Part shown: positions 9,410-25,366 of the stretch, in pieces
Layout of the letters: each line of letters begins with the position of its first letter
How positions within the stretch are numbered: the first letter of the stretch is position 1
Virus record (IMG/VR): IMGVR_UViG_3300008122_000008
Location: 1-25,366 of that record
DNA from: a virus
Reading direction: 5' to 3' (one strand)
DNA length: 25,366 nucleotides
Made by a program: the position numbers and the translations under genes
The notes under the pieces: model-generated
Databases searched by the model: none
Told to the model about the DNA's origin: nothing
The model's input: the letters and a program-made list of their open reading frames with translations, nothing else

Positions 9410-9423
9410 AATTCTGTAAAATA

Positions 9424-10525: not shown

Positions 10526-10544
10526 AGTATCAAACTTTTTATTT

Positions 10545-10552
10545 TATTTATC
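10545..10552 (-). promoter_or_regulatory. Possible T4-type late promoter (one mismatch)
   Basis: Minus-strand GATAAATA differs by one base from the T4 late consensus TATAAATA and is followed by AAAT. It lies just upstream of a putative capsid protein. Such motifs occur by chance in AT-rich DNA, so this is tentative. Confidence 0.3.
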
Positions 10553-10564
10553 TAATATATTGTA

Positions 10565-10570
10565 TATAAT
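10565..10570 (+). promoter_or_regulatory. Candidate -10 element TATAAT
   Basis: A perfect TATAAT in the context TTGTATATAAT lies 32 bases before the 108-aa plus-strand gene. No good -35 is found at 16-18 bases upstream. It would drive the two-gene plus-strand insert. Confidence 0.4.
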
Positions 10571-10596
10571 TATATTGTATTTTTAAGGATATTATA

Positions 10597-10923: not shown

Positions 10924-10926
10924 GAG

Positions 10927-11641: not shown

Positions 11642-11655
11642 TTAGTCCTCACAAT

Positions 11656-11685
11656 AAAAAAAGGTAGAACATTATATTCTACCTT
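11656..11685 (-). terminator. Rho-independent terminator
   Basis: A 9-bp stem AAGGTAGAA/TTCTACCTT with a 7-base loop is followed on the minus strand by a run of seven T. It ends the 254-aa gene at 11706-12470. Confidence 0.85.
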
Positions 11686-11705
11686 TTATTTATCATAATT
11701 TAAAA

Positions 11706-12470
11706 TTATGATACATTTACCACACGACCTGCTGCAACAGCAAATGGATGATTATCAGCAATCATTTTATCAACTTTAGTCATAATTGCTTCAACACGAT
11801 CAAAGTTAGTAACAACAAAATTACCTTGTTCGATTTGTTTAATTACAGTTGAGAAGTATGAACTTGTATAATCTTTATCTTGTCCTTTAACAAAGTTATG
11901 AACATAGATAACATTTGCAAGACGTAACTTACGAGCACGATCATTTCCAAGCCATGTATTTACAGCTGAAACTTTTGCATCAGTTACATTTAAATCGTCT
12001 TTAGATGCTTGATATGATTCTAATGATGCAGATAATGAACTATCAGTTTTGAATTCTTCAATATCAACAGTGCGACCCATTACATTACTGAATAATAATA
12101 ATTCACCAGGATATTGCATAAAATATGATGCAGCTTTATTATAAGCATCCATATCTTCTACTGGTGCACTGAATTCAAGTTGAGTTGTTTGTTTAGGTGC
12201 ATTTTCTTTTTCAGCTTGTTCAACTAGTTTAACGCCAGCTTGAATTTTTTCCCACATCCAATCTTTAATATCGAAACGACCGTATTTATAATGAGACATT
12301 GAATTAGATTTACCAGGACAATGATCAAATACATGTTTTGCTAAAGCTGATGTACGACCACCTTTTTCATTACACCACGTACGTAAAAAAACTGCGCGAT
12401 CTGAATTTTCATATTTGTTAACAGTTTGAGCCATTTTTGACTTTGTTGAACCTTTTTTTGAATCAACCAT
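11706..12470 (-). CDS. Putative DNA-binding protein with Cro/YdaS-like N-terminal domain, 254 aa
   Basis: Residues about 28-88 (FLRTWCNEKGGRT...YKYGRFDIKDWMWEKIQAG...EQAE) follow the pattern of YdaS/Cro-type helix-turn-helix proteins: L..W....GR...LA......G...YK.G...I.D..W..I. The same domain, including WC-x(3,4)-GRT, opens the 272-aa protein at 18383-19201, so the two are paralogues. The C-terminal part (about 105-254) is helical, and its KVSAVNTWLGNDRARKLRLA segment seems to have a counterpart in the paralogue, suggesting full-length homology. The N-terminus is basic. There is a good SD (AAGGAATTTAGA), a promoter upstream and a strong terminator, so this is a single-gene unit. It could be a phage transcription regulator; the helix-turn-helix assignment is by pattern only. 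Confidence 0.7.
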   Translation of the reverse strand: MVDSKKGSTKSKMAQTVNKYENSDRAVFLRTWCNEKGGRTSALAKHVFDHCPGKSNSMSHYKYGRFDIKDWMWEKIQAGVKLVEQAEKENAPKQTTQLEFSAPVEDMDAYNKAASYFMQYPGELLLFSNVMGRTVDIEEFKTDSSLSASLESYQASKDDLNVTDAKVSAVNTWLGNDRARKLRLANVIYVHNFVKGQDKDYTSSYFSTVIKQIEQGNFVVTNFDRVEAIMTKVDKMIADNHPFAVAAGRVVNVS

Positions 12471-12511
12471 TCTAAATTCCTTAACAAGGGGTCATTCGAT
12501 TTTGAGATTTA

Positions 12512-12541
12512 ATTATACACATATAATCAAATATAAGTAAA
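12512..12541 (-). promoter_or_regulatory. sigma70-like promoter
   Basis: On the minus strand, TTTACT, an 18-base spacer and a perfect TATAAT lie about 40 bases upstream of the putative DNA-binding protein gene. This fits host-polymerase (early) transcription. Confidence 0.55.
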
Positions 12542-12549
12542 CATATTTT

Positions 12550-13092
12550 TTAACTTTTAATTACGATTTTCGCGTATTCTTCTAACACATCTTTACGGAA
12601 AGGTAGATCAGCCCAATTAAATTTAAATTGTTTTTTAATTACAGTCTGACTATATGCAGACGTAAAAGCAGCTAATTCTTTTGTCTTATCATTAATATTT
12701 TGGGCATCAGATTCACCATCTTCCCGACTAAGCAATTTAATAGGATCATCCTGGAATATACATAGCTTAAACATATGCGAATTCTCACCAATCGCATGTT
12801 CCAGTACATTTAAAGGTAATGATAGCTTTCTATATAAAGGCCCATATACAGTCTCACTGATCCATGAACGATCTAATATAATATCGAATCCTTCATTATT
12901 AAGCTTAATAGCATTGTTAATTAATTCATTATAATAGATCATAGTCCATCGTTGAAGCAAATCACCAAATAGCTCTTTTGGCGGCTTACTGGAATGTATA
13001 ATCAACTGTCGCGGATTTAATATATTATTTCGCAAATGATTAATAAATGTAGATTTACCGCAACGATCCGGTCCTTCAATAACGTAGATCAT
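12550..13092 (-). CDS. P-loop deoxynucleoside monophosphate kinase (thymidylate-kinase-like), 180 aa
   Basis: The N-terminus MIYVIEGPDRCGKSTF carries a Walker A loop of the thymidylate kinase type (G-x-D-x-x-GKST, residues 7-15). A central LDRSWISE (73-80) matches the DR(Y/S) motif that holds the base and phosphate in dTMP kinases. A region near residue 120 (LLSREDGESDAQNIND) could be the lid. Length is near that of bacterial and phage dNMP kinases (about 180-240). The likely reaction is ATP-dependent phosphorylation of dTMP or another dNMP for phage DNA synthesis; base specificity cannot be read. The ATG follows AAGGAATATTAA. A late-like TATAAATA at 13123-13130 and the rII terminator lie upstream. 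Confidence 0.82.
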   Translation of the reverse strand: MIYVIEGPDRCGKSTFINHLRNNILNPRQLIIHSSKPPKELFGDLLQRWTMIYYNELINNAIKLNNEGFDIILDRSWISETVYGPLYRKLSLPLNVLEHAIGENSHMFKLCIFQDDPIKLLSREDGESDAQNINDKTKELAAFTSAYSQTVIKKQFKFNWADLPFRKDVLEEYAKIVIKS

Positions 13093-13122
13093 TTAATATT
13101 CCTTAAGAGTTGTATATGTGTA

Positions 13123-13130
13123 TATTTATA
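13123..13130 (-). promoter_or_regulatory. Candidate T4-type late promoter TATAAATA
   Basis: An exact TATAAATA lies on the minus strand 30 bases upstream of the kinase start, downstream of the rII terminator. Spacing to the SD is suitable. A late promoter before a kinase gene is unexpected, so chance occurrence in AT-rich DNA must be considered. Confidence 0.4.
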
Positions 13131-13150
13131 TTATGTCATATTTCAAATAT

Positions 13151-13187
13151 AAAAAAATGCCAATCTATTAAAGACTGGCATTTTTAT
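13151..13187. terminator. Rho-independent terminator after rIIB
   Basis: The stem AAAAATGCCA/TGGCATTTTT, extended by TCT/AGA after one mismatch, is flanked by A and T runs. On the minus strand it terminates the rIIA-rIIB unit. Confidence 0.88.
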
Positions 13188-13194
13188 TTTTCAA

Positions 13195-14088
13195 TTAAAC
13201 TGTGGCGGTAACATCAGCTAATACTTTATATTCGCATACACGAGCTTTAGCACCACTGTAGTCAACAGGGATACTTACAAAGTCTTTAGGATGAACTTTA
13301 CATTTAATAACGCGATTATTAGCACCGCCATAATATTTATTAATATATGACATTGAACCTACATGTAAACCGCGTGAACATGTTTTATTAGGATCCGTAT
13401 CAACTACGGCACGATCTTCAGTTACCGTTTTACCAACCGAATTATCAAATTTACCAGTACGATGATCAAGATAATTATGTGTTACCGCTTTAAAGCAAAT
13501 AACATATCCATCTTTATCAATACCAATATCATTATGCTGAATAAAATCAAATAATTGCGTAATAATTCGATCATCAGTATTTTGTAAAAGAAGATCCGCA
13601 AATTTAATAATATTCGCATCTTTCTTTTTATTAGCAAGAGTTAGAATACCATAAAGTGACTTAGATACTTCTTTCTTTTTATAAAGACATTTGCCATTTT
13701 TTAAATAAAGGTTTCCTTCGGTTGTAGCAACTAAATCTTTAATTTCAGGTTTATAATCGGCATCGCCAATTAACTGATTATATTCGCTTTGCGTCATGCT
13801 ATAGTCATCACGATTAAGCAGACTTAAAATTAATTCTTTATTTAAAACATATACAGCACTTTCAGTATTGATATTATAAATATTATCATTTACGATAACA
13901 GACATAACACCACTACGCTTCATTACTGAATATGGATATTTTACTTCATCAGCCAATCGTTTCAGGTGGTCACTCATCGTGGTTGGTGCGATACCAACTG
14001 CACGACAAGCGGCAGCTTTACTGCTACCTTTCTTGATTTCGTCATGATATTTTGCTAAAATTGCATTTGTTACTTTATACGATTTCAT
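13195..14088 (-). CDS. rIIB: rIIB-like protein, 297 aa
   Basis: The length is close to T4 rIIB (312 aa), and the position directly after rIIA with an ATGA start/stop overlap is the T4 arrangement. Residues 1-45 are a helix-turn-helix (KKGSSKAAACRAVGIAPTTM). The C-terminal part (about 190-297) has the family's GYVICFKAVTHNYLDHRTG and TCSRGLHVGSMSYI...VIKCKVHPKDFVSIP segments. In T4, rIIA and rIIB are membrane-associated early proteins needed for growth on lambda lysogens (overcoming RexAB exclusion) and for normal lysis-inhibition behaviour; their biochemical function is still unclear. Coupled translation with rIIA is suggested by the overlap. No defect is visible in this gene, in contrast to rIIA. 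Confidence 0.9.
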   Translation of the reverse strand: MKSYKVTNAILAKYHDEIKKGSSKAAACRAVGIAPTTMSDHLKRLADEVKYPYSVMKRSGVMSVIVNDNIYNINTESAVYVLNKELILSLLNRDDYSMTQSEYNQLIGDADYKPEIKDLVATTEGNLYLKNGKCLYKKKEVSKSLYGILTLANKKKDANIIKFADLLLQNTDDRIITQLFDFIQHNDIGIDKDGYVICFKAVTHNYLDHRTGKFDNSVGKTVTEDRAVVDTDPNKTCSRGLHVGSMSYINKYYGGANNRVIKCKVHPKDFVSIPVDYSGAKARVCEYKVLADVTATV

Positions 14089-16092
14089 CGATTTACCTTT
14101 TTAGTAATTAGTTTTTGAACTAATGGTTTTCCTACTTTAATATCTTTAAATGCATCTTCACACTCAGCCGGAATTCTAATATTTAAGCTATGTAATACAG
14201 CATCTAATGCAATAGCATCATTATCTGTATATTTCTCAAATATTGAATTAAGATATGAACTTAATCCATCTTTATCTTTTAAAAGCGGTTGAATTTGATT
14301 ATTAAATTTATAATACAATAAATCATATAAAGTATTATTCTTAATTTTAGAAGAATATACTAATTTCTTATTTGTAATAATATTATTACAAACAAAATCA
14401 TTAATAGATATTATATTGCGATTTACTGTAACATTAAATTCTTGGCTTCGTCTTTCAGAAATTAAGAAAATAGGCGGACATTTTACACTATTTTGAATAG
14501 CAGCCAAATAACGAATTGGCCAACTATTATTAAGCTCACCATTACGTTTAGTATATAAAACTATACATGGTTGTGATTTTAAAATATCCAAATCTGCTTC
14601 ATTAATTGGATAACGACCACTTTCAGACTTGTATAAATATAGACCATTTAAATTAACGTCTTTCACTTTTGGTAAGCGTGGTTGCGATACACCCTTAACA
14701 CGTTTAGTTCTTTCAAGCTGTACTGGCTTTATATTATATCCATAAAATGGAGAAATATCTTCAATCAATTTCATATAATACGAAATTGCTTTAGCTTTCA
14801 TTCTTACTAAAATACATTGCTTAATTTTATTGTTGACCATATATACACCAAGGTCAGCAATTGTAGTGTCATAGATAAAAATGATTGGTAAATTAGATTC
14901 AAATATTGCAGCCGGTTTAGCATTAATATATCGTCCAGCAACAGCAATATCAGAACTATCTAAAGTATATAATTGAATAGTCTTTTTATAATCAACTGGA
15001 TAGTAAATACTTGTGTCCACTAAAAAGTGCAATATATTTTTAGCGCTAAACTTTGTTAAATAATTTGGATCAATATAAGTATTTGGAATTGTAGCACTAG
15101 TATATTCACCAATATTATTAATTAACGATTTAAATCGATTAATAAAATCTATATACCACTTATAATTATATTTGAATTCTGCCTTAAATTTTTCAAGAAC
15201 AATATTGATAAAATCATCGTGCTGCTTATTAACAACTCGTTCAATACATTCGCGAGTTTGCTTAGTTAATTCAATACGCTCGCGATCAGGCGGAATATTA
15301 ATATCACCAATATTACATTTATAGATAATAGTTTTATTTGTTTTAATAAATTTAATATCTTGTTCTTCAAAATCACGTTGCTCTAACGGATATAAAACTT
15401 GACCCATGTCAATATATGTTTTATGCTGAAATAAATTTGAGTCATGAACTACGCCAATATCACCATAATAAGTGATCTCTTGATAATCAATATCAATATT
15501 TGTGGTTGGTTTAACTTTAAAAGCCGCTAACTGAGTTTGAATCGCATAAACCCATTTCTTAGTGTCACGGTCATCAATAATAATTTTTGTGCCACTTGGC
15601 TCATCGGTTTTAACTTCACCAACTACAAAAAATTGGGGTACACCTTTATTCTCACGAGCAAAAGTAACAGATGTTTTAATATTATTTTTAATTGAGATAA
15701 CCATAAAGTCATCTACAATAGAGAATGGGCTTTTACATCCAATACCGTAAGCACCAATAGCGTCATTACTATTTTCTTTACTTGACTCTAATAAAGTACC
15801 AAAGTATTTGATGATTTCATCTTTGCTTAAACCATCACCAAAATCGCGAATTGTAAATTTACCTTCAATTTCACCTGGTACTTCAATATGAAAAGGTACA
15901 AGCTCTTTACCCCGCAGATTTGTGTGCATCCCAAGCATTGCAAGATAGTTCACGAACGATTGATCCATATTTATCTTTATATAGACCATCAATTAACATT
16001 GTGAATAATTTTGATGAGTTTTTAACCTGCATAGTATGCTGGTCATTACTCCCAAAGATCTCTACATTAGAGTCTTGTGCCTCAATTTTCAT
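14085..16092 (-). CDS. rIIA: rIIA-like GHKL ATPase-fold protein with a +1 frame break (about 668 aa if joined)
   Basis: The N-terminal ORF (start ATG 16092, alternative 16104) reads through the N-box ELSCNAWDAH (residues about 48-57) and stops at TAA 15909-15907. In the +1 frame the protein continues immediately with KELVPFHIEVPG, DFGDGLS (G1 box, 83-89) and GAYGIGCKSPFS (G2 box, 113-124), then about 540 more residues to TGA at 14085. Joined, the product is about 668 aa, near T4 rIIA (725 aa), with a Bergerat ATP-binding fold. The break is at GCG GGG TAA A: skipping one base, or removing one G from GGGG, restores SAG-KEL exactly. It could be a sequencing or assembly error, a mutation, or programmed +1 frameshifting at a stop codon. 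The 3' part has no internal start that would supply the N-box. The rIIB overlap and a promoter at 16132-16158 define the operon. Confidence 0.85.
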
Positions 16093-16131
16093 ATAAATTA
16101 CCATATTGAATAAAATAAGTTGTTTATATAT

Positions 16132-16158
16132 ACTATACTTGTTTTATATTTTTGTATA
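16132..16158 (-). promoter_or_regulatory. Candidate promoter for rIIA-rIIB
   Basis: On the minus strand, TATACA, a 15-base spacer and TATAGT lie about 40 bases upstream of rIIA. The -35 hexamer is the same as in the candidates at 8574 and 20719. It overlaps the divergent promoter on the other strand. Confidence 0.4.
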
Positions 16159-16168
16159 TATGTTATAT
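16139..16168 (+). promoter_or_regulatory. Candidate promoter for the 106-aa plus-strand gene
   Basis: TTGTTT, an 18-base spacer and TTATAT lie about 55 bases before the gene at 16222. The match is moderate and the region is extremely AT-rich. Confidence 0.35.
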
Positions 16169-16221
16169 ACGTTTTTATAAAAATAATGTAATATTTTTAC
16201 ATCTTAATGTGGGGTATGCTT

Positions 16222-16542
16222 ATGACTGAATTTATGTTTTATGTCAGATACACTGGTTGGTATGCAGAAGCAATTGTGGAAAATTCTACAGGATATCAAT
16301 ATATTGATATCGATACCGCTAATAGAAATATAAAATATTCTAATATAAAAAGTCCTTCAAGTATCTGTATTAAAGATATTGAAAGACTTATATATAGTCA
16401 TGCTTTGGTTAATTCAAGAGGCGGTTTAAAAGATGCGATAGACATATATGAATATAATGAACGATTTCAATGGATTGATTATGATTTATATGACGCAATT
16501 CAAGATGTACAAACTTGTATGTGTTTAAAGCAATTGGATTAA
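16222..16542 (+). CDS. Hypothetical protein, 106 aa
   Basis: Unrecognised small protein with aromatic, beta-like N-terminal half (MTEFMFYVRYTGWYAEAIVE) and a helical second half (SICIKDIERLIYSHALV). The frame is open from ATG 16207, but GTGGGGT 8-14 bases before ATG 16222 is the only SD-like sequence, so 16222 is preferred. It is a lone plus-strand gene between rIIA and the 355-aa gene, and its stop overlaps the stop of that convergent gene by 4 bases. Confidence 0.7.
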   Translation: MTEFMFYVRYTGWYAEAIVENSTGYQYIDIDTANRNIKYSNIKSPSSICIKDIERLIYSHALVNSRGGLKDAIDIYEYNERFQWIDYDLYDAIQDVQTCMCLKQLD

Positions 16543-17606
16543 ATCGGTTTAATAGATATAATTCTATCTAAAGGGATTGTACGCCAATCATCAAGGTCTA
16601 AGTCACGAACAATAATAGTATTTTGCTTTTGGGTAATTTGTGCATCAGTTTTACCGATTCGGAAATTACCCGTTCTAACTTGACCATTCGCTTTTTTAAA
16701 TTTACAATATACGTCAAAGTCCATACGATCAGCAATTGCTAATAATGTACGTTTAGAATATTCAGTATTTGTTTGTTTCTTAACTACCTGGTTAGAATTA
16801 CCTAATTTTTTATTCTTATCCTCTTCCGGAAATTTATCATCCATTTCCTTTTTAAGATTATTATTAGAATCTTTATCATCTACTTGTGATAAATTATCTA
16901 CTTTTTTATAACCATTATTATCCGATGAAGTTTCAGCCTTTTGCTTTTTAAACATTGAATTTGTAAGCTGTTTATCAAGCTTATCATTTGTACTATCAAC
17001 GTTTTTATTATCTTGCTGCTTTTGATCATCCATAGATTTATCGGCAAAAGTCACATTAACTTTATTACCTTCATCTTCAGCTTGCTTTAATTTTTGATCT
17101 CGTATTTCCTGGTCACGTTTTTGCTGTTCAGCTCGTTCTGCTTGACGTCGTTCATTTTCAGCACGCATACGATCAGCAAATGATAAAGGCTTTGGTTTCT
17201 CTTGTGTATTTGATGATGAACTAACTGATGAATCTGAATTAGGTTTACCAAAAATATGCTTTTCTGGTTTATCATTATCTAAGTTAGGATTTTCTTTTTT
17301 AAGACCTAATCGAACAGCTAATGATAATTTATTTTGTTTAGGCTCTTCTTTAGTATCTTCAGATTCTTCCTCTTCTTTTTTAGGAGGCAATGTCATTTCA
17401 GCTAGTTTCGCCGCTTTACCTTTTTCTTTTTTGGTAAAGTATTCATCATCTTCTAAAATCTTTTTGAGTTCATCTTCAGTGATATGTTTGAAAACATTAT
17501 AGCCATAAAGACCCTTTGATTTTATCTTTTTAATAAAATCTTCTAATTCAATTTCATTATTTTCTTCAGAATCTATTGCTTCTGTTAGATAATTATCAAA
17601 GTACAT
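16539..17606 (-). CDS. Long charged, putatively capsid-targeted protein, 355 aa
   Basis: From ATG 17606 the protein begins MYFDNYLTE|AIDSEENNE, matching the capsid-targeting pattern of three other proteins in the window, with LTE as a candidate prohead-protease site. GTAGGCAA lies before this ATG; an upstream in-frame ATG (17624) would add six residues and spoil the pattern. Residues about 60-280 are highly charged, Lys/Glu/Gln/Asn-rich, low-complexity and coiled-coil-like (RAENERRQAERAEQQKRDQ). Residues about 285-355 are a compact beta domain (VYCKFKKANGQVRTGNFRIG...DDWRTIPLDRIISIKPI) recalling the KKDG...R...FRTG unit of the protein at 9424. It may be a scaffold-core or DNA-associated internal head protein. 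Function is inferred from the N-terminus and composition only. Confidence 0.72.
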   Translation of the reverse strand: MYFDNYLTEAIDSEENNEIELEDFIKKIKSKGLYGYNVFKHITEDELKKILEDDEYFTKKEKGKAAKLAEMTLPPKKEEEESEDTKEEPKQNKLSLAVRLGLKKENPNLDNDKPEKHIFGKPNSDSSVSSSSNTQEKPKPLSFADRMRAENERRQAERAEQQKRDQEIRDQKLKQAEDEGNKVNVTFADKSMDDQKQQDNKNVDSTNDKLDKQLTNSMFKKQKAETSSDNNGYKKVDNLSQVDDKDSNNNLKKEMDDKFPEEDKNKKLGNSNQVVKKQTNTEYSKRTLLAIADRMDFDVYCKFKKANGQVRTGNFRIGKTDAQITQKQNTIIVRDLDLDDWRTIPLDRIISIKPI

Positions 17607-17624
17607 TTGCCTACAACTTCCCAT

Positions 17625-18155
17625 TCTTTATAATATGTATTTAATACATTTTCTTTTATTATTCTCTGGACATGACTCACCACTTTATATCTGTGATTTT
17701 AGTAAATTATGATTTAAAAATAATAGAGAAGTTAATCTCAGAATTTAAAAATCATAAATTTAATAATAGAAATACATATTCAATTGATAATTAAAATAGA
17801 TCAATTAGAATATTTTATAAAGGATAAGAGACATATGATTTACTTCAAATGATTGCTGTATTTCATTTGATTCAAATTACAGTAGGCCCAACAATGCCGG
17901 CATCCCAAATACAGTGGTTGCTTTCAAGTTTATACTTCCCTTTCAGGACATTCTTTTGTCATAGAATGTATATCTCACAAGAACTTATTACGGCTTCCTG
18001 TGCATCAATATATGTAGACAGTTCAAAATAGTCAATCAAATACTAAGTTTATCATTCTACATAAGTTATGATCTACGACGATCATATGAACACTACGGTT
18101 GGTTTGACGTCTATTAATTAATCTTGTGCAATCATAATAATTAATAGATGAATCC
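17625..18155. other. 530-bp dyad-rich intergenic region of higher GC, no intact gene
   Basis: This is the longest stretch without an intact gene. The part from about 17.84 to 18.16 kb is visibly richer in G+C than its surroundings. It holds several inverted repeats: tcaaatga/tcatttga (17845-17870), acattct/agaatgt (17948-17969), tatgatc/gatcata (18067-18086) and ctattaatta/taattaatag (18111-18120 with 18138-18147). On the minus strand, successive open stretches that look protein-like (RSVHMIVVDHNLCRMINLVF, FELSTYIDAQEAV, KLESNHCIWDAGIVGPTVI) lie in different frames separated by stops. This could be a decayed gene, an assembly with indels, a recoded gene or a structured RNA. A plus-strand frame at 17849-18031 (60 codons) lacks an SD. 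No tRNA cloverleaf was found. The 17.63-17.84 kb part is AT-rich and looks like leader for the 355-aa gene. Confidence 0.5.
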
Positions 18156-18287
18156 TTAATTAGATTCTTCGTGTTCAGATGGTTGATTACCGGTACCTGC
18201 TTTCACAGGATCACATCTTGGGTTTTCAGTGGTCGAAATAGCCCAAACTTTTTTTATTGCGATTGCATTAGTATTATCAACTAACAT
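18156..18287 (-). CDS. Small hypothetical protein, 43 aa
   Basis: The ORF runs from ATG 18287 to TAA 18156 and encodes a peptide beginning MLVDNTNAIAIKKVWAISTT and ending EHEESN. AGGATAAAGA just before the ATG is a strong SD, and an exact late-promoter motif TATAAATA lies at 18350-18357, so the gene is likely real despite its size. It has one Cys, a Gly/Pro-containing middle and an acidic tail; no domain is recognised. Its codons are less AT-biased than those of neighbours, like the dyad-rich region downstream. The +1 frame after its stop stays open for 41 codons. Confidence 0.65.
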   Translation of the reverse strand: MLVDNTNAIAIKKVWAISTTENPRCDPVKAGTGNQPSEHEESN

Positions 18288-18349
18288 TCTTTATCCTATT
18301 GTTCCACGCCCAGATAAAGTAAGGCTAATATTTACAAATATTGAATATG

Positions 18350-18357
18350 TATTTATA
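18350..18357 (-). promoter_or_regulatory. Candidate T4-type late promoter TATAAATA
   Basis: Exact TATAAATA on the minus strand in the context GGTATAAATACATATTC. The expected start would be near 18344, giving a 5' leader of about 57 bases to the 43-aa gene. A related sequence, GTATTAAATACATATT, precedes the 355-aa gene (around 17636-17646). Confidence 0.5.
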
Positions 18358-18382
18358 CCATAATTTACCGTTAAAGTAAATA

Positions 18383-19201
18383 TTATGCTGCCATTAACAG
18401 CTCATTTTTCGACTTATTAATATTAGTAAAATATTCTTTATAATAATTTAAGTCTATTAATTTAGCGGCTTTATCAATACTATTAATTGATAAAATATCT
18501 AATAATGGATCATTATTAATAATTAGATAATCAATTACATTCATTGAAGATAATACATTTTTATATACATTACCTCTAATACTGGTATTAACTATAAATG
18601 ATGTATTATAAAAACAAGTAAATTTATTTCTTAGAATTTTATTATTTGTCATCAATGGATAAACGATATTGAATAATTTCTTTTTCAGTGTATCATTAAT
18701 TAATAGCCAATCATCAACTTTATTTTTTAAAATATGGCTTTCAATTTTGGTACTAGGTGTAATGATTTTACTTTTTTTAAAATCTGGATATTTATTAACA
18801 ATAATATCTTTATATAAAGGATTTTTAATATTGGATAGATTTAAGTCTAAACCTACATATTCACCAAATAGTTTTATTGTTTCTTCATTTTTTAAAGTTT
18901 TTAGTGCTCTATGATAAATACGCGATGTAATATCGTACTGGGTGTGCCGGATTCGACCTTTTACAGGAATCTTTATAGTTGGCTCACTTTCTTCAATAAT
19001 TGGCATAGCAGCTTGTATGGAGCACCAAACAGCGTCTGTGATTTGCATTTTACCAGATTTATATGGATAAATTCGACCATCCTCTTCATCGAATAAATAT
19101 CGGCTCAAATTGATAGTACGTCCTTTATGGATATTACACCATTCAATAAGTTCTTTTACGCGAGTGTCATCTTTATATTTCGCGTCTTCTACATTCTTCA
19201 T
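18383..19201 (-). CDS. Putative DNA-binding protein, paralogue of the 254-aa protein, 272 aa
   Basis: Residues about 17-73 (ELIEWCNIHKGRT...YPYKSGKMQITDAVWCSIQAA...EESE) align by eye with the Cro/YdaS-like N-terminal domain of the protein at 11706-12470, sharing WC, GRT, YK-x-G, I-x-D-x-x-W and IQA. The remaining 200 residues are helical, Asn/Ile/Lys-rich and more diverged. This copy uses the very AT-rich codons typical of the window, whereas the 254-aa copy is less biased, which suggests different ages or expression levels. GGAT 8-11 bases before the ATG is a possible SD. The H1-like gene's terminator lies directly upstream. A regulatory role is inferred from the domain only. Confidence 0.68.
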   Translation of the reverse strand: MKNVEDAKYKDDTRVKELIEWCNIHKGRTINLSRYLFDEEDGRIYPYKSGKMQITDAVWCSIQAAMPIIEESEPTIKIPVKGRIRHTQYDITSRIYHRALKTLKNEETIKLFGEYVGLDLNLSNIKNPLYKDIIVNKYPDFKKSKIITPSTKIESHILKNKVDDWLLINDTLKKKLFNIVYPLMTNNKILRNKFTCFYNTSFIVNTSIRGNVYKNVLSSMNVIDYLIINNDPLLDILSINSIDKAAKLIDLNYYKEYFTNINKSKNELLMAA

Positions 19202-19240
19202 AAAAAATATCCATATAGATTTAATAAAATTATATAATAA

Positions 19241-19267
19241 AAAAGGACCCTATAGTAGAGTCCTTTT
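19241..19267 (-). terminator. Rho-independent terminator
   Basis: The stem AAAAGGAC/GTCCTTTT, with a loop that can add a CTA/TAG pairing, is followed on the minus strand by a T run. It terminates the H1-like gene. Confidence 0.82.
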
Positions 19268-19280
19268 TAACTTTATTCAA

Positions 19281-19856
19281 TTAAAGCTTGTTGATATCTA
19301 GACCGCATTCTTTCAAATGATTACTGATGCTACCTAAGCGGATAAATTCGATACCATACGCTTTAGGCAATTTAGTAATAGTGCAAAACTGTTTTGCAGA
19401 GATATCACCAAAGTCTTCACTATGCTTGATAGTGAGAATATGCAGAGTACTCAATTTAGAACCACGCGGGGCTTTATGTACTTCTTTAGTGATTGCATTT
19501 AAAAGGTCTCGCTGATGTTTAGTTACACCTTTTACTTCACGTGGTTTACGTGTAGTTTGCTTTTCAACTGTATCGGTTTTTTGTTCAGTAGATTCTGCTT
19601 TAGCCGTCGCATTTTTAGTTGCAGTAGTAGTTTTAGCTTTTACTGGTGCTTTAGTACGAGCAGTTTTAGCAGGTGTATCAGATTTAGCATTTGCCTTATT
19701 TGCACTTGCTTTTTTACGTTGAGCAGTCAATGCAGCTTTTGCTTTAGGCTGGCTAGTTGCTTTCGCTTTGGCCGGAGTTGCTACATTTTCATTATCTTGA
19801 GCTACAACCGCGTTATTAGTAGTGTCAGTAGTAGTTGTGTTAGTTGCTGTATTCAT
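19281..19856 (-). CDS. Histone H1-like basic protein with C-terminal domain, 191 aa
   Basis: The N-terminal Thr/Asn-rich segment is followed by a long Ala/Lys/Thr/Pro tract (residues about 28-115, e.g. ATPAKAKATSQPKAKAALTA) like the tails of bacterial and eukaryotic H1-type DNA-binding proteins. Residues about 120-191 (VTKHQRDLLNAITKEVHKAP, then SAKQFCTITKLPKAYGIEFI) form a compact helical domain of unknown family. It probably coats or condenses DNA, in the cell or the virion. The start is ATG 19856 (MNTATN) or ATG 19868 (MVTIMN); ATGGTAACTATT before the former resembles the arrangement at the 120-aa gene. The frame is open further upstream to 19955, but that part includes the promoter. Alternating homopolymer-like codons make antisense frames look open; those are shadows. 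Confidence 0.75.
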   Translation of the reverse strand: MNTATNTTTTDTTNNAVVAQDNENVATPAKAKATSQPKAKAALTAQRKKASANKANAKSDTPAKTARTKAPVKAKTTTATKNATAKAESTEQKTDTVEKQTTRKPREVKGVTKHQRDLLNAITKEVHKAPRGSKLSTLHILTIKHSEDFGDISAKQFCTITKLPKAYGIEFIRLGSISNHLKECGLDINKL

Positions 19857-19890
19857 AATAGTTACCATATGTTTGTTGTGATGATGATTT

Positions 19891-19919
19891 ATTATTAGCC
19901 ATAACTTACGGCTTGTACA
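19891..19919 (-). promoter_or_regulatory. Candidate promoter for the H1-like gene
   Basis: On the minus strand, TGTACA, a 17-base spacer and AATAAT occur, with the -35 embedded in AATGTATGTACAA. That 11-13-base element is also present upstream of the 120-aa gene at 9786. Confidence 0.45.
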
Positions 19920-20032
19920 TACATTGATTAAAAAATTTACACTTTTACTATACAAATTATGGTAAACAATAAATAAGTTATTGATTTTTATATATTTATT
20001 ATTTACCGCTAAATGTAATTATTTGTAATAAA

Positions 20033-20368
20033 CTATTGTTTTAAATAATTAAATACACACTTTTCCATTATTATGACTATAGAATAAGCTAATTCTGACT
20101 TATTATCCACTAAATTTATTGGTTTTCTAAGGACAAAAATAGGATGTTCGAGCTTATGTATCATCAGTCGGCGTAGCATTACATCTAAATCTTCTTGCAT
20201 AAAGTCCATATATGCATTTGGTATATTATCAATAAATACTAAATGATCATTATTTGCAAATTCTTTATCATAATGAGCAACTGCATCCATATATCTGGAT
20301 TCTTTTAATAAGTTGGATGAATGCTCACGTACGAGCGATATAAGTTTAGAAGAGTCTAGATTTGACAT
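20033..20368 (-). CDS. Hypothetical protein, 111 aa
   Basis: Unrecognised, mostly helical soluble protein (SSKLISLVREHSSNLLKESR, DVMLRRLMIHKLEHPIFVLR). The ATG at 20368 has GGAGATATCCA before it, a strong SD, and lies inside the 3' end of the preceding 104-aa gene (23-base overlap in another frame), so the pair is co-translated. It has no membrane segment or enzyme motif. The 163 bp after it hold the promoter of the H1-like gene and no clear terminator. Confidence 0.75.
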   Translation of the reverse strand: MSNLDSSKLISLVREHSSNLLKESRYMDAVAHYDKEFANNDHLVFIDNIPNAYMDFMQEDLDVMLRRLMIHKLEHPIFVLRKPINLVDNKSELAYSIVIIMEKCVFNYLKQ

Positions 20369-20660
20369 TGGATATCTCCGGATTTAAAATAATACTAATA
20401 AGGTGTGATAAATTGCTTTTAATAAAGATATGATCTTCGTAGATTTCAACTCTATCCCATATTTGTGGAATTAAGTCTTCTTTAATTATTGGTAAATAAG
20501 TGCTAATTGGTGCATTATTTCTATGAAATATTACATAGCTAATAATAGATTGATTAAATGCATCTACTAACAATTGGTACTTGCGTTCAGATTCTAATTG
20601 ATATAACGCAGCTAGTTGAAAATATTCAGACCACTTGCTTTTGTCTTTTGGAAACAACAT
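20346..20660 (-). CDS. Hypothetical protein, 104 aa
   Basis: Unrecognised. Helical N-terminal half (FQLAALYQLESERKYQLLVD) and mixed second half. The ATG at 20660 is preceded by GGAGGTGTATATAT, the most complete SD in the window, implying strong translation. It is the first gene of a two-gene minus-strand unit, divergent from the Cys-cluster gene at 20782. Confidence 0.75.
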   Translation of the reverse strand: MLFPKDKSKWSEYFQLAALYQLESERKYQLLVDAFNQSIISYVIFHRNNAPISTYLPIIKEDLIPQIWDRVEIYEDHIFIKSNLSHLISIILNPEISNVKSRLF

Positions 20661-20718
20661 ATATATACACCTCCATAAATTTTTTCAATAATACAGTATA
20701 AAAATATTAAAAGATGTA

Positions 20719-20747
20719 TATACATTTAAAAATTAGCGGTATATAAT
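20719..20747 (+). promoter_or_regulatory. sigma70-like promoter
   Basis: TATACA, a 17-base spacer and TATAAT. The -35 lies in the palindrome TGTATATACA, related to the ATGTATGTACA elements before two other genes. Confidence 0.6.
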
Positions 20748-20781
20748 AGCTACATACACAATAAACTCGATGGAGTTAAAA

Positions 20782-21255
20782 ATGGCTAAAAAAAATTTAT
20801 TCGGTTTACGTTGCGCATGTTGCGGTTCAGATATCACTGCCCCTCAATTCTATAAGGGCCAAATGTATGGCTATACATGCATTACTAAAGTTGCCCCAAA
20901 GCAAAAGAAAAATAAAGTAGCTGATTTATTAATCATCCCTTTCGATAAAATCGAAGATACTATTAATAATTTTATTCCATATAATCGAACATCGGTTAGT
21001 CGATCTCACCGTATTGGTTATATTTTTACATTATCAACGGGTTTACGTTTATTTATACACGCAAGCCGCATTTATACTACTATTGCAGGTTTAAACCCGC
21101 GTAGTGACACTACAATAGCTCATGGATCACAAACTTATATTGATTATGAGAAAAAAATTCTTATTGTACCAAGAAATATTTGGGAACCAGAAACAATAAT
21201 TAAATTGCGTGGCGTACCAGGAATTCAAGGCGATTTTAAATATCTAGACCAATAA
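20782..21255 (+). CDS. Cys-cluster protein, 157 aa
   Basis: The N-terminus MAKKNLFGLRCACCGSDI has a CxCC cluster (Cys 11, 13, 14) followed by a further Cys at about 33 (YGYTC), suggesting a small zinc or metal site; the rest is beta-rich (IGYIFTLSTGLRLFIHASRI). Family unknown. The frame is open from ATG 20770, but ATGGAGTTAAAA makes GGAG a proper SD for the ATG at 20782, which is preferred. It has its own good promoter and a bidirectional terminator, so it is an independent plus-strand unit. More GC and Arg codons (cgt, cgc) than most neighbours. Confidence 0.75.
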   Translation: MAKKNLFGLRCACCGSDITAPQFYKGQMYGYTCITKVAPKQKKNKVADLLIIPFDKIEDTINNFIPYNRTSVSRSHRIGYIFTLSTGLRLFIHASRIYTTIAGLNPRSDTTIAHGSQTYIDYEKKILIVPRNIWEPETIIKLRGVPGIQGDFKYLDQ

Positions 21256-21279
21256 AAAGAGGCTTATGCCTCTTTTTTT
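21254..21279. terminator. Bidirectional terminator between convergent genes
   Basis: Perfect stem AAAAAGAGGC/GCCTCTTTTT with a TTAT loop and seven T. It overlaps the stop of the Cys-cluster gene and serves the convergent internal-protein gene as well. Confidence 0.9.
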
Positions 21280-21288
21280 ATCAATCAA

Positions 21289-21957
21289 TTATTTATATAC
21301 AAAAGCAGGAAGAGTGCCACCGTATACTTTGGCCATATCTTTTAGATCTTTAGCATGACCCCAGTCTACTAATACGCCGCCGCCAAGATCACGTCCAGAT
21401 TGATCACCTTTAAATAAAGAACGATCGCCAATATCAGACGTAGGCTTTTTACCAGATGTTATCACGACACGATATTTTTTATGATCGAGTTGCCATACTT
21501 CATATGTAGACGTATCACCCCAAGTTTCATGTACATTAAAGTATTTACTATTACCAGTTTTCATACTTAACGTACCAATTGATAAAATTGCAGCAGGTCG
21601 GCGTGGCGCTTCGCTTTTAGCTTTATCTGATTCTCTTGTTTTAGGAACCCATGTCTTAACAGCAACTTTTTCAGCTTTTTCCGCAGGATCAGCTTCATCA
21701 TATGCTTTTTTAATTTCTTCATATGTTGCGCCGAGCTCAACTGCTTTATTACCAAAATCGGCAAACGTACCTTTGAATGGCGGTTTAGTTAATTCTGTAT
21801 CAGTAAGCTTTAAACCAGCAACATAACGATCAATAGCTTTTGTTTTATCTTTAATTGATTTAGCAACACTTGCGCCATCTTTTTCTTTATCGATTAAATC
21901 CTGCATACGGGTCCAATCTTTGGCGGTTACTTCATTTAAATATTCTTCAAAATTCAT
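21289..21957 (-). CDS. Putative capsid-targeted internal protein, 222 aa
   Basis: It begins MNFEEYLNE|VTAKDW, matching the capsid-targeting pattern of the proteins at 9908, 11213 and 16539, with LNE as a candidate prohead-protease site. The mature N-terminal 120 residues are helical and Lys/Asp/Glu-rich (MQDLIDKEKDGASVAKSIKD). A basic Pro-containing linker (KSEAPRRPA, about 117-125) leads to a beta-rich C-terminal domain (about 125-222) with KKYRVVITSGKKP, DRSLFKGDQSGRDLGGG and VDWGHAKDL segments; the family is not recognised. The SD is AGAAGAGA. The gene uses more GC than its neighbours. Two-domain architecture plus the signal suggest an injected effector or head-core protein. Confidence 0.72.
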   Translation of the reverse strand: MNFEEYLNEVTAKDWTRMQDLIDKEKDGASVAKSIKDKTKAIDRYVAGLKLTDTELTKPPFKGTFADFGNKAVELGATYEEIKKAYDEADPAEKAEKVAVKTWVPKTRESDKAKSEAPRRPAAILSIGTLSMKTGNSKYFNVHETWGDTSTYEVWQLDHKKYRVVITSGKKPTSDIGDRSLFKGDQSGRDLGGGVLVDWGHAKDLKDMAKVYGGTLPAFVYK

Positions 21958-22004
21958 TTGTTTCTCTTCTTATATTAATATCAATATTATATATTTAATG
22001 CTAT

Positions 22005-22307
22005 TTAAAAATAGCGTATCTTATAAATATATCCATTTTCTATATGGATGAATTTATCGATTGAATATAAATATTTTATATTTGAAAAATCAAATTCATT
22101 AAGATCACTCACAATGGTATTTGTTGCACATGTACCATTTTTGCCATCTTTTATAATAAAATCATTAATAAATTTAATATTATTTTTTCTTAAAAAAGAT
22201 AATGACGGTAATGTGTCATTATCTTTAGGTTGTGGAGTCAATCGGTCATAAAATTTGCAGCGTCTTTTAAATTTACTATATGATCTTTTATTTACTACAT
22301 TTATCAT
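22005..22307 (-). CDS. Hypothetical protein, 100 aa
   Basis: Unrecognised small basic protein (N-terminus MINVVNKRSYSKFKRRCKFY). The ATG at 22307 follows AGGTGATTGAAGT, an extended SD. Its stop lies in a small hairpin (gctat/atagc, about 22000-22015) without a T run, so this is at best a weak terminator. It is transcribed divergently from the TerL/intein gene; the 90 bp between them holds whatever promoters serve both. Confidence 0.7.
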   Translation of the reverse strand: MINVVNKRSYSKFKRRCKFYDRLTPQPKDNDTLPSLSFLRKNNIKFINDFIIKDGKNGTCATNTIVSDLNEFDFSNIKYLYSIDKFIHIENGYIYKIRYF

Positions 22308-22397
22308 ACTTCAATCACCTGTACTGTAACGATAATAAGTTCATTTTTTATTGTATTTAAAGCTGTATTAAATACAATAAAAACGGTTATAAATATA

Positions 22398-22751
22398 ATG
22401 AACAAATATTTTGCACCTAATAATGGTCGATTTAAAATTCTCACAGATGAAGGCTTTAGCGATTTTTTAGGTGTCACTAAAACAGAACAGTCTTTAACTG
22501 TCAAAGAAATTACATTAGATAATGGTGCAACTATTACAACTACAGTTGATCATTGTATTTTTATTGATACAGTTAATTCAAAGGAAATGGGCAAATTAGG
22601 AATAGGAGATAAAGTTTTATATAATAATCAACTTCATACAATCGTAAGTGTTAGATATAAAGATACTAATGCGGTATATGATGTATTAGAAGTTGAAAAA
22701 AATCATCGATTCTATGTTAAGTCACTTAATCAATATTTTCTGGTAAAAAAC
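22398..22751 (+). other. Split intein 1, C-terminal half (118 aa)
   Basis: It begins with KILTDEGFSDFLGVTKTEQ, similar in pattern to the start of the AceL-TerL intein C-half as I recall it. Block B is ITTTVDHCIF (TxDH), and block F is VYDVLEVEKNHRFYV. It ends FLVKN followed by Cys, the expected Asn/Cys splice junction. The residue before Asn is Lys, not the usual His. The start in front of block B means the intein is split early, between blocks A and B. Confidence 0.85.
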
Positions 22752-23174
22752 TGCCTATATATTGATGAGCTTGGCTTCGTACCAGCGGCCGAAGAATTTT
22801 ATGAATCTGTATATCCAACAATTTCATCATCTGATACTTCTAAAGTAATTATTACAAGTACGCCAAAAGGATTAAACTTCTTTTATAAAATGTGGATTGA
22901 AGCTGAAACAGGTATTAGTGAATATATTGCATATGATGTAAAATGGTACGAACACCCAGACCGCGATCAGGCCTGGTATGATTCACAGGTTGCAAACTTA
23001 AATGCTAAATCAGTTGACCAGGAGATTAATTGTATTGCTGCTAATACAATTATTAATGTAGATAATACAGATATTGCGATCGGTGATTTATATAATAAAT
23101 ATAAAAAGTTAAATTCAGAAAATAATAACGGTGTTGTTTATATTCAAGATATAAATTATACAATTGGAAAATAA
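22398..23174 (+). CDS. terL: Middle piece of a fractured TerL gene: split-intein C-half, TerL ATPase segment, second split-intein N-half (258 aa)
   Basis: Three parts lie in one frame. Residues 1-118 are an intein C-half. Residues 119-211 are terminase large subunit with Walker B (LYIDELGF, 120-127) and the ATPase coupling motif (IITSTPKGLNFFY, 151-163), close to T4 gp17 YIDECAF and ITTTPNGLNHFY. Residues 212-258 begin with Cys and read as an intein N-half that ends at TAA. TerL is the packaging motor ATPase/nuclease. This polypeptide lacks Walker A and the nuclease, so it could only work after trans-splicing to an upstream N-piece (not in the window) and the downstream piece starting at 25105. 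There is no strong SD before ATG 22398; the frame is open back to 22284 with no better start. Neither intein contains an endonuclease. Confidence 0.85.
   Translation: MNKYFAPNNGRFKILTDEGFSDFLGVTKTEQSLTVKEITLDNGATITTTVDHCIFIDTVNSKEMGKLGIGDKVLYNNQLHTIVSVRYKDTNAVYDVLEVEKNHRFYVKSLNQYFLVKNCLYIDELGFVPAAEEFYESVYPTISSSDTSKVIITSTPKGLNFFYKMWIEAETGISEYIAYDVKWYEHPDRDQAWYDSQVANLNAKSVDQEINCIAANTIINVDNTDIAIGDLYNKYKKLNSENNNGVVYIQDINYTIGK
22752..23030 (+). other. TerL extein segment (93 aa): Walker B and coupling motif
   Basis: Cys-LYIDELGF to SVDQEIN. It corresponds to the part of T4 gp17 from Walker B to the end of the ATPase domain (...QFRQE region). The insertion points are therefore just before Walker B and at the ATPase-nuclease junction, both conserved sites. 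Confidence 0.85.
23031..23171 (+). other. Split intein 2, N-terminal half (47 aa)
   Basis: CIAANTIINVDNTDIAIGDL resembles intein block A (Cys1, T-x-I, I-x-I-x-DLY), like the 25-aa N-half of AceL-TerL. It then runs on through an Asn-rich tail to a stop codon. There is no block B, so this is a natural early split rather than a truncated intact intein. Confidence 0.82.
23150..23157 (+). promoter_or_regulatory. Possible late promoter (one mismatch)
   Basis: TATAAATT lies 20 bases before the LamG gene at 23177, inside the end of the TerL/intein ORF. It would allow separate late expression of the adhesin. Chance occurrence is possible. Confidence 0.3.
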
Positions 23175-23176
23175 GC

Positions 23177-25063
23177 ATGGCGAGTCATAAAAAGTATATA
23201 AAAGAATTAAGACCACTTACGTTTATTACATTTGATTCAAATACCTTATGGGATATTGATAATGGCAATTTATTATATGGTGAAACTATACCAGATGAAT
23301 CTGAAAATGGTGAACCTATTAACGCGCTATTACATACTGAATATATTGTAAATCGTAGCTCTTATATGATGGGTCAGCCCTCAATGGTGGTTAATGCTAG
23401 GACTGATAATTATTCTATTGTATTAGCACCATATGAAAAAGATGATAAAAATGAATTTCCTTTTTCTAAATCATGGATTGAAATTCCATATGAAGAGCGC
23501 TTACGTTTAGATAAAAGTTTTAGTATTTCATTTATTTTTAATAAAATTAAATCTGACGGATTTATAAGAAACTGGATTTGGAAAGAAGATCAAAATAGAT
23601 ATGTGGCCGCAAATAACATAAACGGTTATAATTATTCTGATTTATATAGAACTATTTTTCGTAAAGGTAATAAAATAGGTTTAACATATGTAATGCCATA
23701 TTATTATGGAGATTATTTATCAGTTGTTTTTCCAAATAATAGTACGACAATTCAAGGTAGTTCATTACCAGGTTTTTATAATAGAGATGTAAATATTGCC
23801 ATGACACATGAATATATTGTCATGGATGATGGTCGTTATTATACTTTATCTCGCTTATACTGGGATAACCGGGTAATGTACGAACACCAAACTTCTCCAG
23901 TATTTGGCGACTATACCGGTGGTAATACTGCACCATTTGAAATTGGTGGTAACCAGGATGCATGGGCATTTAATACTTTAAATGATAGAGCAACATCTGC
24001 ATTAATATTAGATCAGTTCGCTATTTTTGATTATGCATTACAGCCATTCCAAGTATCAAATATTTATAAAAAGATTTATCCATATGAACAGGTTGTTTTA
24101 CGAGCTGAGCCTACTTTATATTATCCATTTAATGAAAAAAATAATAACTCTGTATTTGAACCTATAGTTAATAATAATTCATATTATACTATTCGATATT
24201 TCGGCGCAAATGAATCTCAAATTGACCGGGGTAAACCTGGTATACATGGCGTTTATGGAACTTCATCAGTACATGTAAAAGCAAAAGGTATGCTATATTG
24301 TAAGCCATATGAAAATAATTATTATGGTAGCACATTCTTTAACCCTGCCGGCGATTTTACAATTGACTTTTTTGCTATGATTGACTCTAATAATAAAGGT
24401 GTATTATTATCTATTCAAGATGATATTCAACCATTTAGAGGTTTATGTTTATATGCAAATTGTAAAAATAATGAAGAACATCCTGGTATGTTACAATTAT
24501 CTATATCTGAAGATAATTATATTATGACAGACGAAAAAAATATTCGTAATGAGGCTGTAACTTATAATCATGGTGTTGTTCGTCATTATGCGATTAGACG
24601 TAAAAATAATTTCATTGAATTATGGATCAATTCAGTATTAGTTAATAAAATATATTTACCTGCTGGTAACTTAACTAATGGGGCTAACCATCTTTATATG
24701 TTCGGATTAATGCCAGGTAATTTATCTGTATCAGGATCAATTCAACATTTGACTTTTTATACACGTGCATTATCACAACAAGAATTAGAAGTTAGATCTT
24801 CTTATATGGTAAAATATAATATTCGTGGAAAAGTAACCGTACAAGGTGTTGGTCAAACTATTTTAATGCGTGTTTATTCATTTAATAATGGTAATTTAGT
24901 TGTAGAGCAAAAAACTGACGGCGATGGATCATATAATTTAACTATTCCAAGTGATGACTATATTAATGTAGTAGTGATGGATGTAGGTAATATTAATATT
25001 CGACCAAAAATATTAGGACCTTTAATGCCAGATGAATATGAAGACTTGCCTTGGGATTATTAA
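23177..25063 (+). CDS. LamG-domain phage adhesion protein, 628 aa, lying between two TerL pieces
   Basis: Two LamG/concanavalin-like modules are visible, at about residues 30-300 (with SFSISFIFNKIK) and 300-545 (with FTIDFFAMID, then HYAIRRKNNFIELWINSVLV and IQHLTFYTRALSQQELE, the typical last strand). Residues about 548-628 (VKYNIRGKVTVQGVGQTILM...DGDGSYNLTIPSDDY) look like a carboxypeptidase-regulatory/transthyretin-like beta-sandwich. This resembles the overall design of the 1864-aa protein at 245, so the two probably serve related receptor- or glycan-binding roles on the virion. GGAAAATAAGC precedes the ATG, which is 2 bases after the TerL/intein stop. Its position, a complete structural gene between the halves of a split intein, is unusual. 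Confidence 0.85.
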   Translation: MASHKKYIKELRPLTFITFDSNTLWDIDNGNLLYGETIPDESENGEPINALLHTEYIVNRSSYMMGQPSMVVNARTDNYSIVLAPYEKDDKNEFPFSKSWIEIPYEERLRLDKSFSISFIFNKIKSDGFIRNWIWKEDQNRYVAANNINGYNYSDLYRTIFRKGNKIGLTYVMPYYYGDYLSVVFPNNSTTIQGSSLPGFYNRDVNIAMTHEYIVMDDGRYYTLSRLYWDNRVMYEHQTSPVFGDYTGGNTAPFEIGGNQDAWAFNTLNDRATSALILDQFAIFDYALQPFQVSNIYKKIYPYEQVVLRAEPTLYYPFNEKNNNSVFEPIVNNNSYYTIRYFGANESQIDRGKPGIHGVYGTSSVHVKAKGMLYCKPYENNYYGSTFFNPAGDFTIDFFAMIDSNNKGVLLSIQDDIQPFRGLCLYANCKNNEEHPGMLQLSISEDNYIMTDEKNIRNEAVTYNHGVVRHYAIRRKNNFIELWINSVLVNKIYLPAGNLTNGANHLYMFGLMPGNLSVSGSIQHLTFYTRALSQQELEVRSSYMVKYNIRGKVTVQGVGQTILMRVYSFNNGNLVVEQKTDGDGSYNLTIPSDDYINVVVMDVGNINIRPKILGPLMPDEYEDLPWDY

Positions 25064-25104
25064 TATAGTTAAATATATTTTATAAAAAGAGATAATTAAA
25101 AGTT

Positions 25105-25366
25105 ATGAATAAGCTTAAAAAATTTGTATCAATTAAAACAATTAAAGATATTGAAATTAAATCTGATATTGGTTATATTCCGATAAAAAATATTATGAAG
25201 ACTGTAGAATATGATGTATATGAATTAGCATTTGATAATGGCGAAATTATAGAATGTGCGGATAATCATATCTTTATTGATACTAATAATAAAGAAATAT
25301 TTGCTGTTGATTTAACACCTGAAGATAAAATTATTTCTAATAATGGATTTACATCTTTAATATCAA
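25105..25366 (+). CDS. terL: Start of the next TerL piece: split intein 2, C-terminal half (partial, runs off the window)
   Basis: The ORF from ATG 25105 is open to the window end (87 codons). It reads MNKLKKFVSIKTIKDIEIKS, then SDIGYIPIKNIMKTVEYDVY, then block B FDNGEIIECADNHIFID, parallel to intein C-half 1 (SDFLGVTKTEQ..., TVDHCIFID). The remaining intein C-half, the splice junction and the TerL nuclease domain should follow outside the window. That part is a prediction, not seen. GAGATAATTAAAAGTT precedes the ATG, a weak SD. Confidence 0.8.
   Translation, partial: MNKLKKFVSIKTIKDIEIKSDIGYIPIKNIMKTVEYDVYELAFDNGEIIECADNHIFIDTNNKEIFAVDLTPEDKIISNNGFTSLIS

What the first reader, a model, noticed from the sequence alone, without database searches (positions are those of the whole stretch)
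23177..25063. A complete LamG adhesin gene lies between the two halves of a split intein
The usual explanation for split-intein genes is insertion of a homing endonuclease. Here the intervening gene is a 628-aa structural/adhesion protein with no endonuclease motif, only 2 bases after the N-half stop. Either a rearrangement moved a tail gene into terL, or an endonuclease was replaced by cargo. Trans-splicing would let the phage tolerate, and even regulate, this arrangement.
Basis: partly seen in the sequence, partly recalled or inferred. Interest (0 to 1): 0.75.

Follow-up and report, generated by a model that had tools for sequence, protein, structure and literature searches.

The report
Phage packaging motor in scrambled pieces
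In this giant phage the gene for the DNA-packaging motor is broken into four separate, out-of-order genes, with a tail-adhesin gene sitting between two of them, and the four protein pieces appear to be stitched together after translation by three different split inteins.

Summary
A complete 628-aa LamG gene (23177-25063) does sit 2 nt after an ORF ending in a split-intein N-half and 41 nt before an ORF opening with a split-intein C-half. The halves are not partners. ORF A (22398-23174) is I_C(site 2)-TerL-I_N(site 3). ORF C (25105 onward, complete in a 98%-identical 381-kb relative) is I_C(site 1)-TerL-I_N(site 2). The order is scrambled: TerL piece 3, LamG, piece 2. In the relative, piece 1 lies 130 kb away on the other strand and piece 4 lies 157 kb away next to gp32/gp18. 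No other TerL was found. Spliced in silico as 1-2-3-4, the exteins align without gaps across all three junctions with intact TerLs and rebuild Walker A. A relative with about 50-65% protein identity keeps the same scrambled cluster. The adhesin is at home in the tail module; the terL pieces moved in beside it. Related phages carry split inteins at the same sites, in normal order, with homing-endonuclease genes between the halves. Best reading: a four-piece TerL assembled by three AceL-TerL-like atypical split inteins plus one cis intein. Splicing itself was not tested.

The parts
22398..22751 (+). I_C2: C-half (118 aa) of the site-2 split intein, ends FLVKN; partner N-half is at the end of ORF C (outside the window, L003 7929-8633)
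   Evidence: intein profile positions 35-145; CatC 6dsl match E=7e-5 for the joined site-2 intein
22752..23030 (+). TerL piece 3 (93 aa, CLYIDELGF...SVDQEIN), carries Walker B
   Evidence: Terminase_6N E=4e-6, phrog_2 E=4e-16; colinear with intact TerL
23031..23174 (+). I_N3: N-half (47 aa, CIAANTIINV...) of the site-3 split intein plus stop; partner C-half is on piece 4 (G001 about 37754-38083)
   Evidence: intein profile positions 1-47 in the G001 copy, weak alone (domain E 0.006-0.015); conserved Cys and site in L034
23177..25063 (+). LamG-domain tail-associated protein, 628 aa; orthologue of Moby CPT_225
   Evidence: Laminin_G_3, PHROG_31125, synteny, dN/dS 0.14
25105..25365 (+). First 87 aa of ORF C: I_C1, C-half of the site-1 (Walker A) split intein, cut by the contig end; partner N-half is on piece 1 (G001 327565-328509, -)
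   Evidence: complete in L003 7929-8633 as I_C1-TerL piece 2-I_N2; site-1 clade in tree

Best explanation
The large terminase (TerL, T4 gp17-type) of this jumbo phage is encoded as four separate genes, out of order and on both strands. Piece 1 is TerL-N ending at Walker A 'RQMGK', then a complete cis mini-intein, then I_N1. Piece 2 is I_C1-TerL-I_N2. Piece 3 is I_C2-TerL-I_N3. Piece 4 is I_C3 plus the nuclease domain. After translation three AceL-TerL-like atypical split inteins (short I_N, long I_C) pair 1-1, 2-2 and 3-3 and splice in trans; the cis mini-intein removes itself. The product is a seamless 568-aa TerL whose Walker A motif exists only after splicing. The LamG gene is an ordinary member of the tail-adhesin operon into which pieces 3 and 2 were moved; the two pieces flank it and are probably transcribed with it. 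Shown by sequence: the anatomy, the closed set of halves, colinearity of the spliced product, conservation of the arrangement. Inferred: that the inteins splice, that pairing is specific, that pieces are co-expressed, and the history (colinear fracturing by homing endonucleases, then endonuclease loss and dispersal).
For: Four TerL ORFs in G001 at 328509-327565(-), 197759-198463(+), 195052-195828(+) and about 37754-38863(+), and no other TerL-like ORF. Intein halves form a closed set: exactly three N-halves and three C-halves, all on TerL ORFs, all split at about the same profile position. Order 1-2-3-4 aligns gaplessly over all three junctions with intact TerLs; score 1278 against 1031 for the next of 24 orders. 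Window 5725-25366 is colinear with G001 at 98.2%. The relative 3300011947 keeps piece 3-LamG-piece 2-LamG and a stacked piece 1, at 47-65% aa identity. Low dN/dS: extein 3 has 0 nonsynonymous changes, I_C1 0.04, LamG 0.14. The C-half of ORF C falls in the site-1 clade, support 0.96. The isolated Salicola phage SCTP-2 (440 kb) has its only TerL in three dispersed pieces with matching halves. Every split site has a colinear counterpart with an endonuclease-like gene: site 1 L155/L158/L160, site 2 CP21, site 3 L172/L183.
Against: No splicing data. I_C2 ends in KN (RN in the relative) instead of the usual HN, and I_N3 has an unusual block A (CIAANT), so splicing at sites 2 and 3 could be slow. I_N1/I_N2 (42% identical) and I_C1/I_C3 (39%) are similar enough that cross-pairing is possible. 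Pieces 1 and 4 were read in G001, not in the window's own record. The pieces of the 3300011947 relative lie on two contigs and its piece 4 was not found. AlphaFold models were uninformative.
Confidence: 0.88

Rival explanations
1. One reading: one split intein whose two halves flank the adhesin, because an adhesin replaced the homing endonuclease between them or was moved into terL.
For: The gene order I_N, LamG, I_C as seen in the window alone.
Against: The N-half follows TerL 'QEIN' (site 3) and the C-half precedes 'TTVAAG' (Walker A, site 1); joining them would fuse TerL out of order. C-half phylogeny puts it with site-1 inteins. The adhesin orthologue lies in the tail module of relatives with intact TerL.
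Confidence: 0.03
2. The pieces are decaying remnants; the phage packages with another, undetected terminase.
For: Unusual terminal residues at site 2 (KN/RN) and block A at site 3.
Against: Extein 3 has no nonsynonymous change and low dN/dS elsewhere; arrangement and reading frames kept at 47-65% identity; ATPase and nuclease motifs intact; no other TerL-like ORF.
Confidence: 0.06
3. Assembly artefact: chimeric joins placed terL pieces beside an adhesin.
For: Metagenomic contigs; repeats exist in the genome.
Against: The window and G001 differ by 1.8% yet are colinear over 19.6 kb; the same cluster is present in a relative with about 50-65% protein identity from another sample; every ORF has clean ends; an isolate, SCTP-2, shows the same kind of dispersal.
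Confidence: 0.01
4. The pieces are joined at RNA level (group I/II introns or trans-splicing RNAs), as for terL of Jug phages.
For: RNA-spliced terL is known in other phages (PMC12363816; ICP1, PMC10448857).
Against: No Rfam intron match in the region even at E<=1 or in the window; the ORF ends code for conserved intein halves; piece order and strands would need RNA trans-splicing.
Confidence: 0.02

Closest known systems
Fractured genes with split inteins (Dassa et al. 2009; paper not held, cited by PMC6892783 and PMC7891396)
   Same: An essential phage gene split inside an intein, halves on separate ORFs; an endonuclease gene normally lies between.
   Different: The described cases read here are two ORFs in normal order around an endonuclease; here four ORFs, scrambled, on both strands, with a structural gene between non-partner halves.
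AceL-TerL / GOS-TerL / Cat atypical split inteins (reviewed in PMC11766414; CatC structure 6dsl)
   Same: TerL host, short N-half (25-37 aa) and C-half of about 104 aa; the in-silico joined site-1 and site-2 inteins match CatC over their C-half part at E 2e-4 and 7e-5.
   Different: Three such inteins in one protein, at three sites.
Salicola phage SCTP-2 TerL (MF360958; ORF 267 annotated as terminase)
   Same: TerL in three dispersed pieces with a double-flanked middle piece.
   Different: Three pieces, not four; pieces not in an adhesin operon; I found no published note of the splitting.
Campylobacter phages CP21 and F370, and the IBB_35 paper (PMC3322345)
   Same: terL split by inteins at or near site 2; F370 has two dispersed ORFs.
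   Different: Two pieces; CP21 is colinear with a T5orf172/GIY-YIG gene between.
Jug phages (PMC12363816)
   Same: terL in 2-3 fragments in a jumbo phage.
   Different: Group I introns, spliced at RNA level, fragments in order.

Membership tests
Naturally split intein (class 1) | N-half with block A Cys1 at the end of one ORF; C-half with blocks F/G ending in N before C/S/T at the start of another | tested here: met
   Three N-halves with Cys1; C-halves end HN|T, KN|C, HN|C
Naturally split intein (class 1) | Trans-splicing activity | not testable with these tools
   needs expression
AceL-TerL-type atypical split intein | Short N-half, with block B carried by the C-half | tested here: met
   N-halves 36, 33, 47 aa; C-halves about 103-118 aa carrying block B
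Dassa-type fractured gene | Host gene interrupted within the intein, halves as separate ORFs | tested here: met
Dassa-type fractured gene | Homing-endonuclease gene between the two halves | tested here: not met
   LamG lies between non-partner halves; no endonuclease in the gaps; an HNH-like ORF lies only near piece 1
T4 gp17-type terminase large subunit | Walker A, Walker B and nuclease acidic residues in order after splicing | tested here: met
   RQMGK|TT, LYIDE, TVDT / IESN / HDD in alignment with intact TerLs
LamG tail adhesin | LamG/ConA-like domain, encoded in the tail module | tested here: met
   Laminin_G_3; synteny with Moby tail genes
LamG tail adhesin | Binding to the host surface | not testable with these tools
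   no binding data; AF2 model unusable

The most novel reading that the evidence does not exclude
A naturally scrambled protein-coding gene put right purely at protein level: four dispersed, out-of-order ORFs joined by three mutually specific split inteins plus stacked cis inteins, with Walker A made only at the splice, so that packaging can start only when all four pieces are present.
Probability: 0.7. Interest if true: 0.85.

Novelty: new variant of a known kind. Interest (0 to 1): 0.78.

Why it matters
It shows how far split inteins can release an essential gene from physical continuity: not only split, but dispersed and reordered. It offers a natural set of three atypical split inteins that must tell each other apart within one protein, where mis-pairing would skip or circularise a piece; that is useful for multi-segment ligation. 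It also gives a graded series (cis intein, two-piece with endonuclease, three-piece in order, three-piece dispersed, four-piece scrambled) in which the route to gene scrambling can be tested. Gene finders and marker-gene surveys that rely on TerL will miss such phages.

Tried and rejected
AlphaFold models of ORF A and LamG had mean pLDDT 41 and 29 and were not used or searched further. T4-like late promoter TATAAATA: 19 in the window against 15.8 expected, no support, although one lies 2 nt upstream of ORF A. Rfam: nothing. A genome-contig scan for piece 2 found no relative. An LamG alignment scan found no further loci. Net charges of halves (I_N1 -6, start of I_C1 +4) fit pair 1 but do not settle pairs 2 and 3. 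Misassembly and RNA introns were considered and rejected. The TerL profile used contains the spliced G001 sequence, so its scores on G001 are inflated; the absence of any other TerL ORF is not affected and agrees with the independent phrog_2 search.

Full report
What is in the window. The window is a 25,366-base virus record. ORF A (22398-23174, 258 aa) is a composite: a 118-aa intein C-half, a 93-aa stretch of T4-type TerL (Terminase_6N E=4e-6; phrog_2 E=4e-16) and a 47-aa intein N-half. Two bases later begins a complete 628-aa LamG-domain protein (23177-25063), and 41 nt after it begins ORF C (25105 onward), an intein C-half cut by the contig end.

The complete picture comes from a relative. 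A 380,997-base contig (IMGVR_UViG_3300011242_000001, G001) is 98.2% identical and colinear with window 5725-25366. There ORF C is complete: I_C (117 aa...SHN) + TerL 'TTVAAGY...SVRGQSVN' + I_N 'CIDINTM...'. TerL piece 1 is at 328509-327565(-): TerL to 'FPRQMGK', a complete mini-intein 'CVTGD...AILSN', and directly abutting it an N-half 'CIDGDSM...GSQQ'. Piece 4 is at about 37754-38863(+): C-half '...ILSHN', then 'CSFLGSSNTLI...' to the TerL C-terminus, between gp32-like and tail-sheath-like genes, the T4-like place of gene 17 (the gp32 and sheath names are my reading of the sequences).

Pairing. The four exteins (132+84+93+259 aa) in order 1-2-3-4 align without a gap at any junction with intact TerLs from Moby, IME-SM1, ACP17 and an environmental phage; of 24 orders, 1234 scores 1278 and the next 1031. 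Profile searches find TerL only on these four ORFs, and split intein halves only on them: three N-halves and three C-halves, all split at about the same profile position; the only other inteins are complete ones, the cis mini-intein of piece 1 and one in NrdA. In a tree of C-halves every split or cis intein of the site-1 lineage forms one clade (support 0.96) that contains the C-half of ORF C; the stacked cis mini-intein of piece 1 falls outside it, near the site-2 inteins. So the N-half before LamG (site 3) and the C-half after it (site 1) are not partners. The gene order is piece 3, LamG, piece 2.

Is it real and kept? The relative in sample 3300011947 has the same cluster (piece 3, LamG 629 aa, piece 2, second LamG-like gene; 47%, 50% and 65% aa identity for the first three) and the same kind of piece 1 on a second contig. 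Between window and G001, extein 3 has no amino-acid change, I_C1 has dN/dS 0.04 and LamG 0.14; piece 1, compared between L043 and G001, has 0.15. This excludes misassembly and argues against decay.

Where does the adhesin belong? Its orthologue in Stenotrophomonas phage Moby (CPT_225) lies in the tail/baseplate region, and the genes downstream in G001 (orthologues of CPT_231, 232, 215-217, gp48, gp53, 220, gp5) match that region. Moby's TerL is intact. So terL pieces came to the adhesin, not the reverse.

Origin. In other phages split inteins at the same sites are found in normal order with endonuclease-like genes between: site 1 in L155/L158 (DUF559/Vsr-like) and L160 (T5orf172), site 2 in Campylobacter phage CP21 (T5orf172/GIY-YIG), site 3 in L172/L183 (phrog_3339 homing endonuclease); L172 has sites 1 and 3 split at once, in order. 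Salicola phage SCTP-2, an isolate, has its only TerL in three pieces at about 216 kb(-), 256 kb(+) and 429 kb(-). Campylobacter phage F370 has two dispersed pieces. The simplest history is fracturing by homing endonucleases, loss of the endonucleases, then dispersal, which trans-splicing tolerates. This is inference.

Mechanism. The in-silico joined site-1 and site-2 inteins match, over their C-half part, gp41-1 (6qaz E=2e-6, site 1) and the consensus atypical TerL intein CatC (6dsl E=2e-4 and 7e-5). Splicing would rebuild Walker A (RQMGK|TT) and place Walker B next to piece 2, so no fragment alone has the whole ATPase. Pieces 2 and 3 have the order I_C-extein-I_N used in engineered cyclisation (my knowledge), so specific pairing matters; a published 24 x 24 matrix found cross-reaction mostly among atypically split inteins (PMC7090010). 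Splicing, specificity and timing remain untested.

Known or new? Split TerL inteins and fractured genes are known. I found no report, in the held library, of a gene in four trans-spliced, reordered pieces; Dassa et al. 2009 could not be read, so a precedent there is possible.

Noticed in passing
L045 4430-6364 (G003 59126-61060) and G001 327565-328509: Inteins stacked at one site: in G001 a cis mini-intein abuts the split N-half at Walker A with no extein between, so Cys1 of the second is the +1 residue of the first; in the 3300011947 relative a third intein, with a LAGLIDADG domain, is stacked before them.
   Followed up: partly
window 22540-22660; L043 about 6341-6760: Mismatches against G001 are concentrated inside intein segments (22 in 120 nt in I_C2; dS 0.12 in the cis intein) while flanking exteins are nearly identical, as if inteins were exchanged by recombination.
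   Followed up: partly
window about 17860-18386: A stretch of about 480 nt without a clear gene, with at least five further partial copies in G001 (68-75% identity, at 26.8, 58.1, 87, 151 and 265 kb); no Rfam match.
   Followed up: partly
G001 325186-325974(-), L043 8536-9324, L045 7086-7871: HNH/Srd-like ORF of about 262 aa conserved shortly downstream of TerL piece 1; possible remnant or relative of a homing endonuclease.
   Followed up: partly
L048 1102-3216 (Vibrio phage vB_VmeM-32): The annotated terL starts directly with a site-1 intein C-half and also has a cis intein at DE|C; its N-terminal piece should lie elsewhere in the genome.
   Followed up: no
L047 4959-5852, L051, L057 (Salicola phage SCTP-2): TerL in three dispersed pieces in an isolated 440-kb phage; the middle piece alone is annotated as terminase in the region read.
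   Followed up: yes
G001 114935-117841: NrdA with a complete cis mini-intein and a second odd insertion after 'CVEIALPTAGYN'.
   Followed up: no
window 1-5724: The 1882-aa LamG-domain protein at the left end is not colinear with G001, while the rest is 98% identical: a variable adhesin.
   Followed up: no
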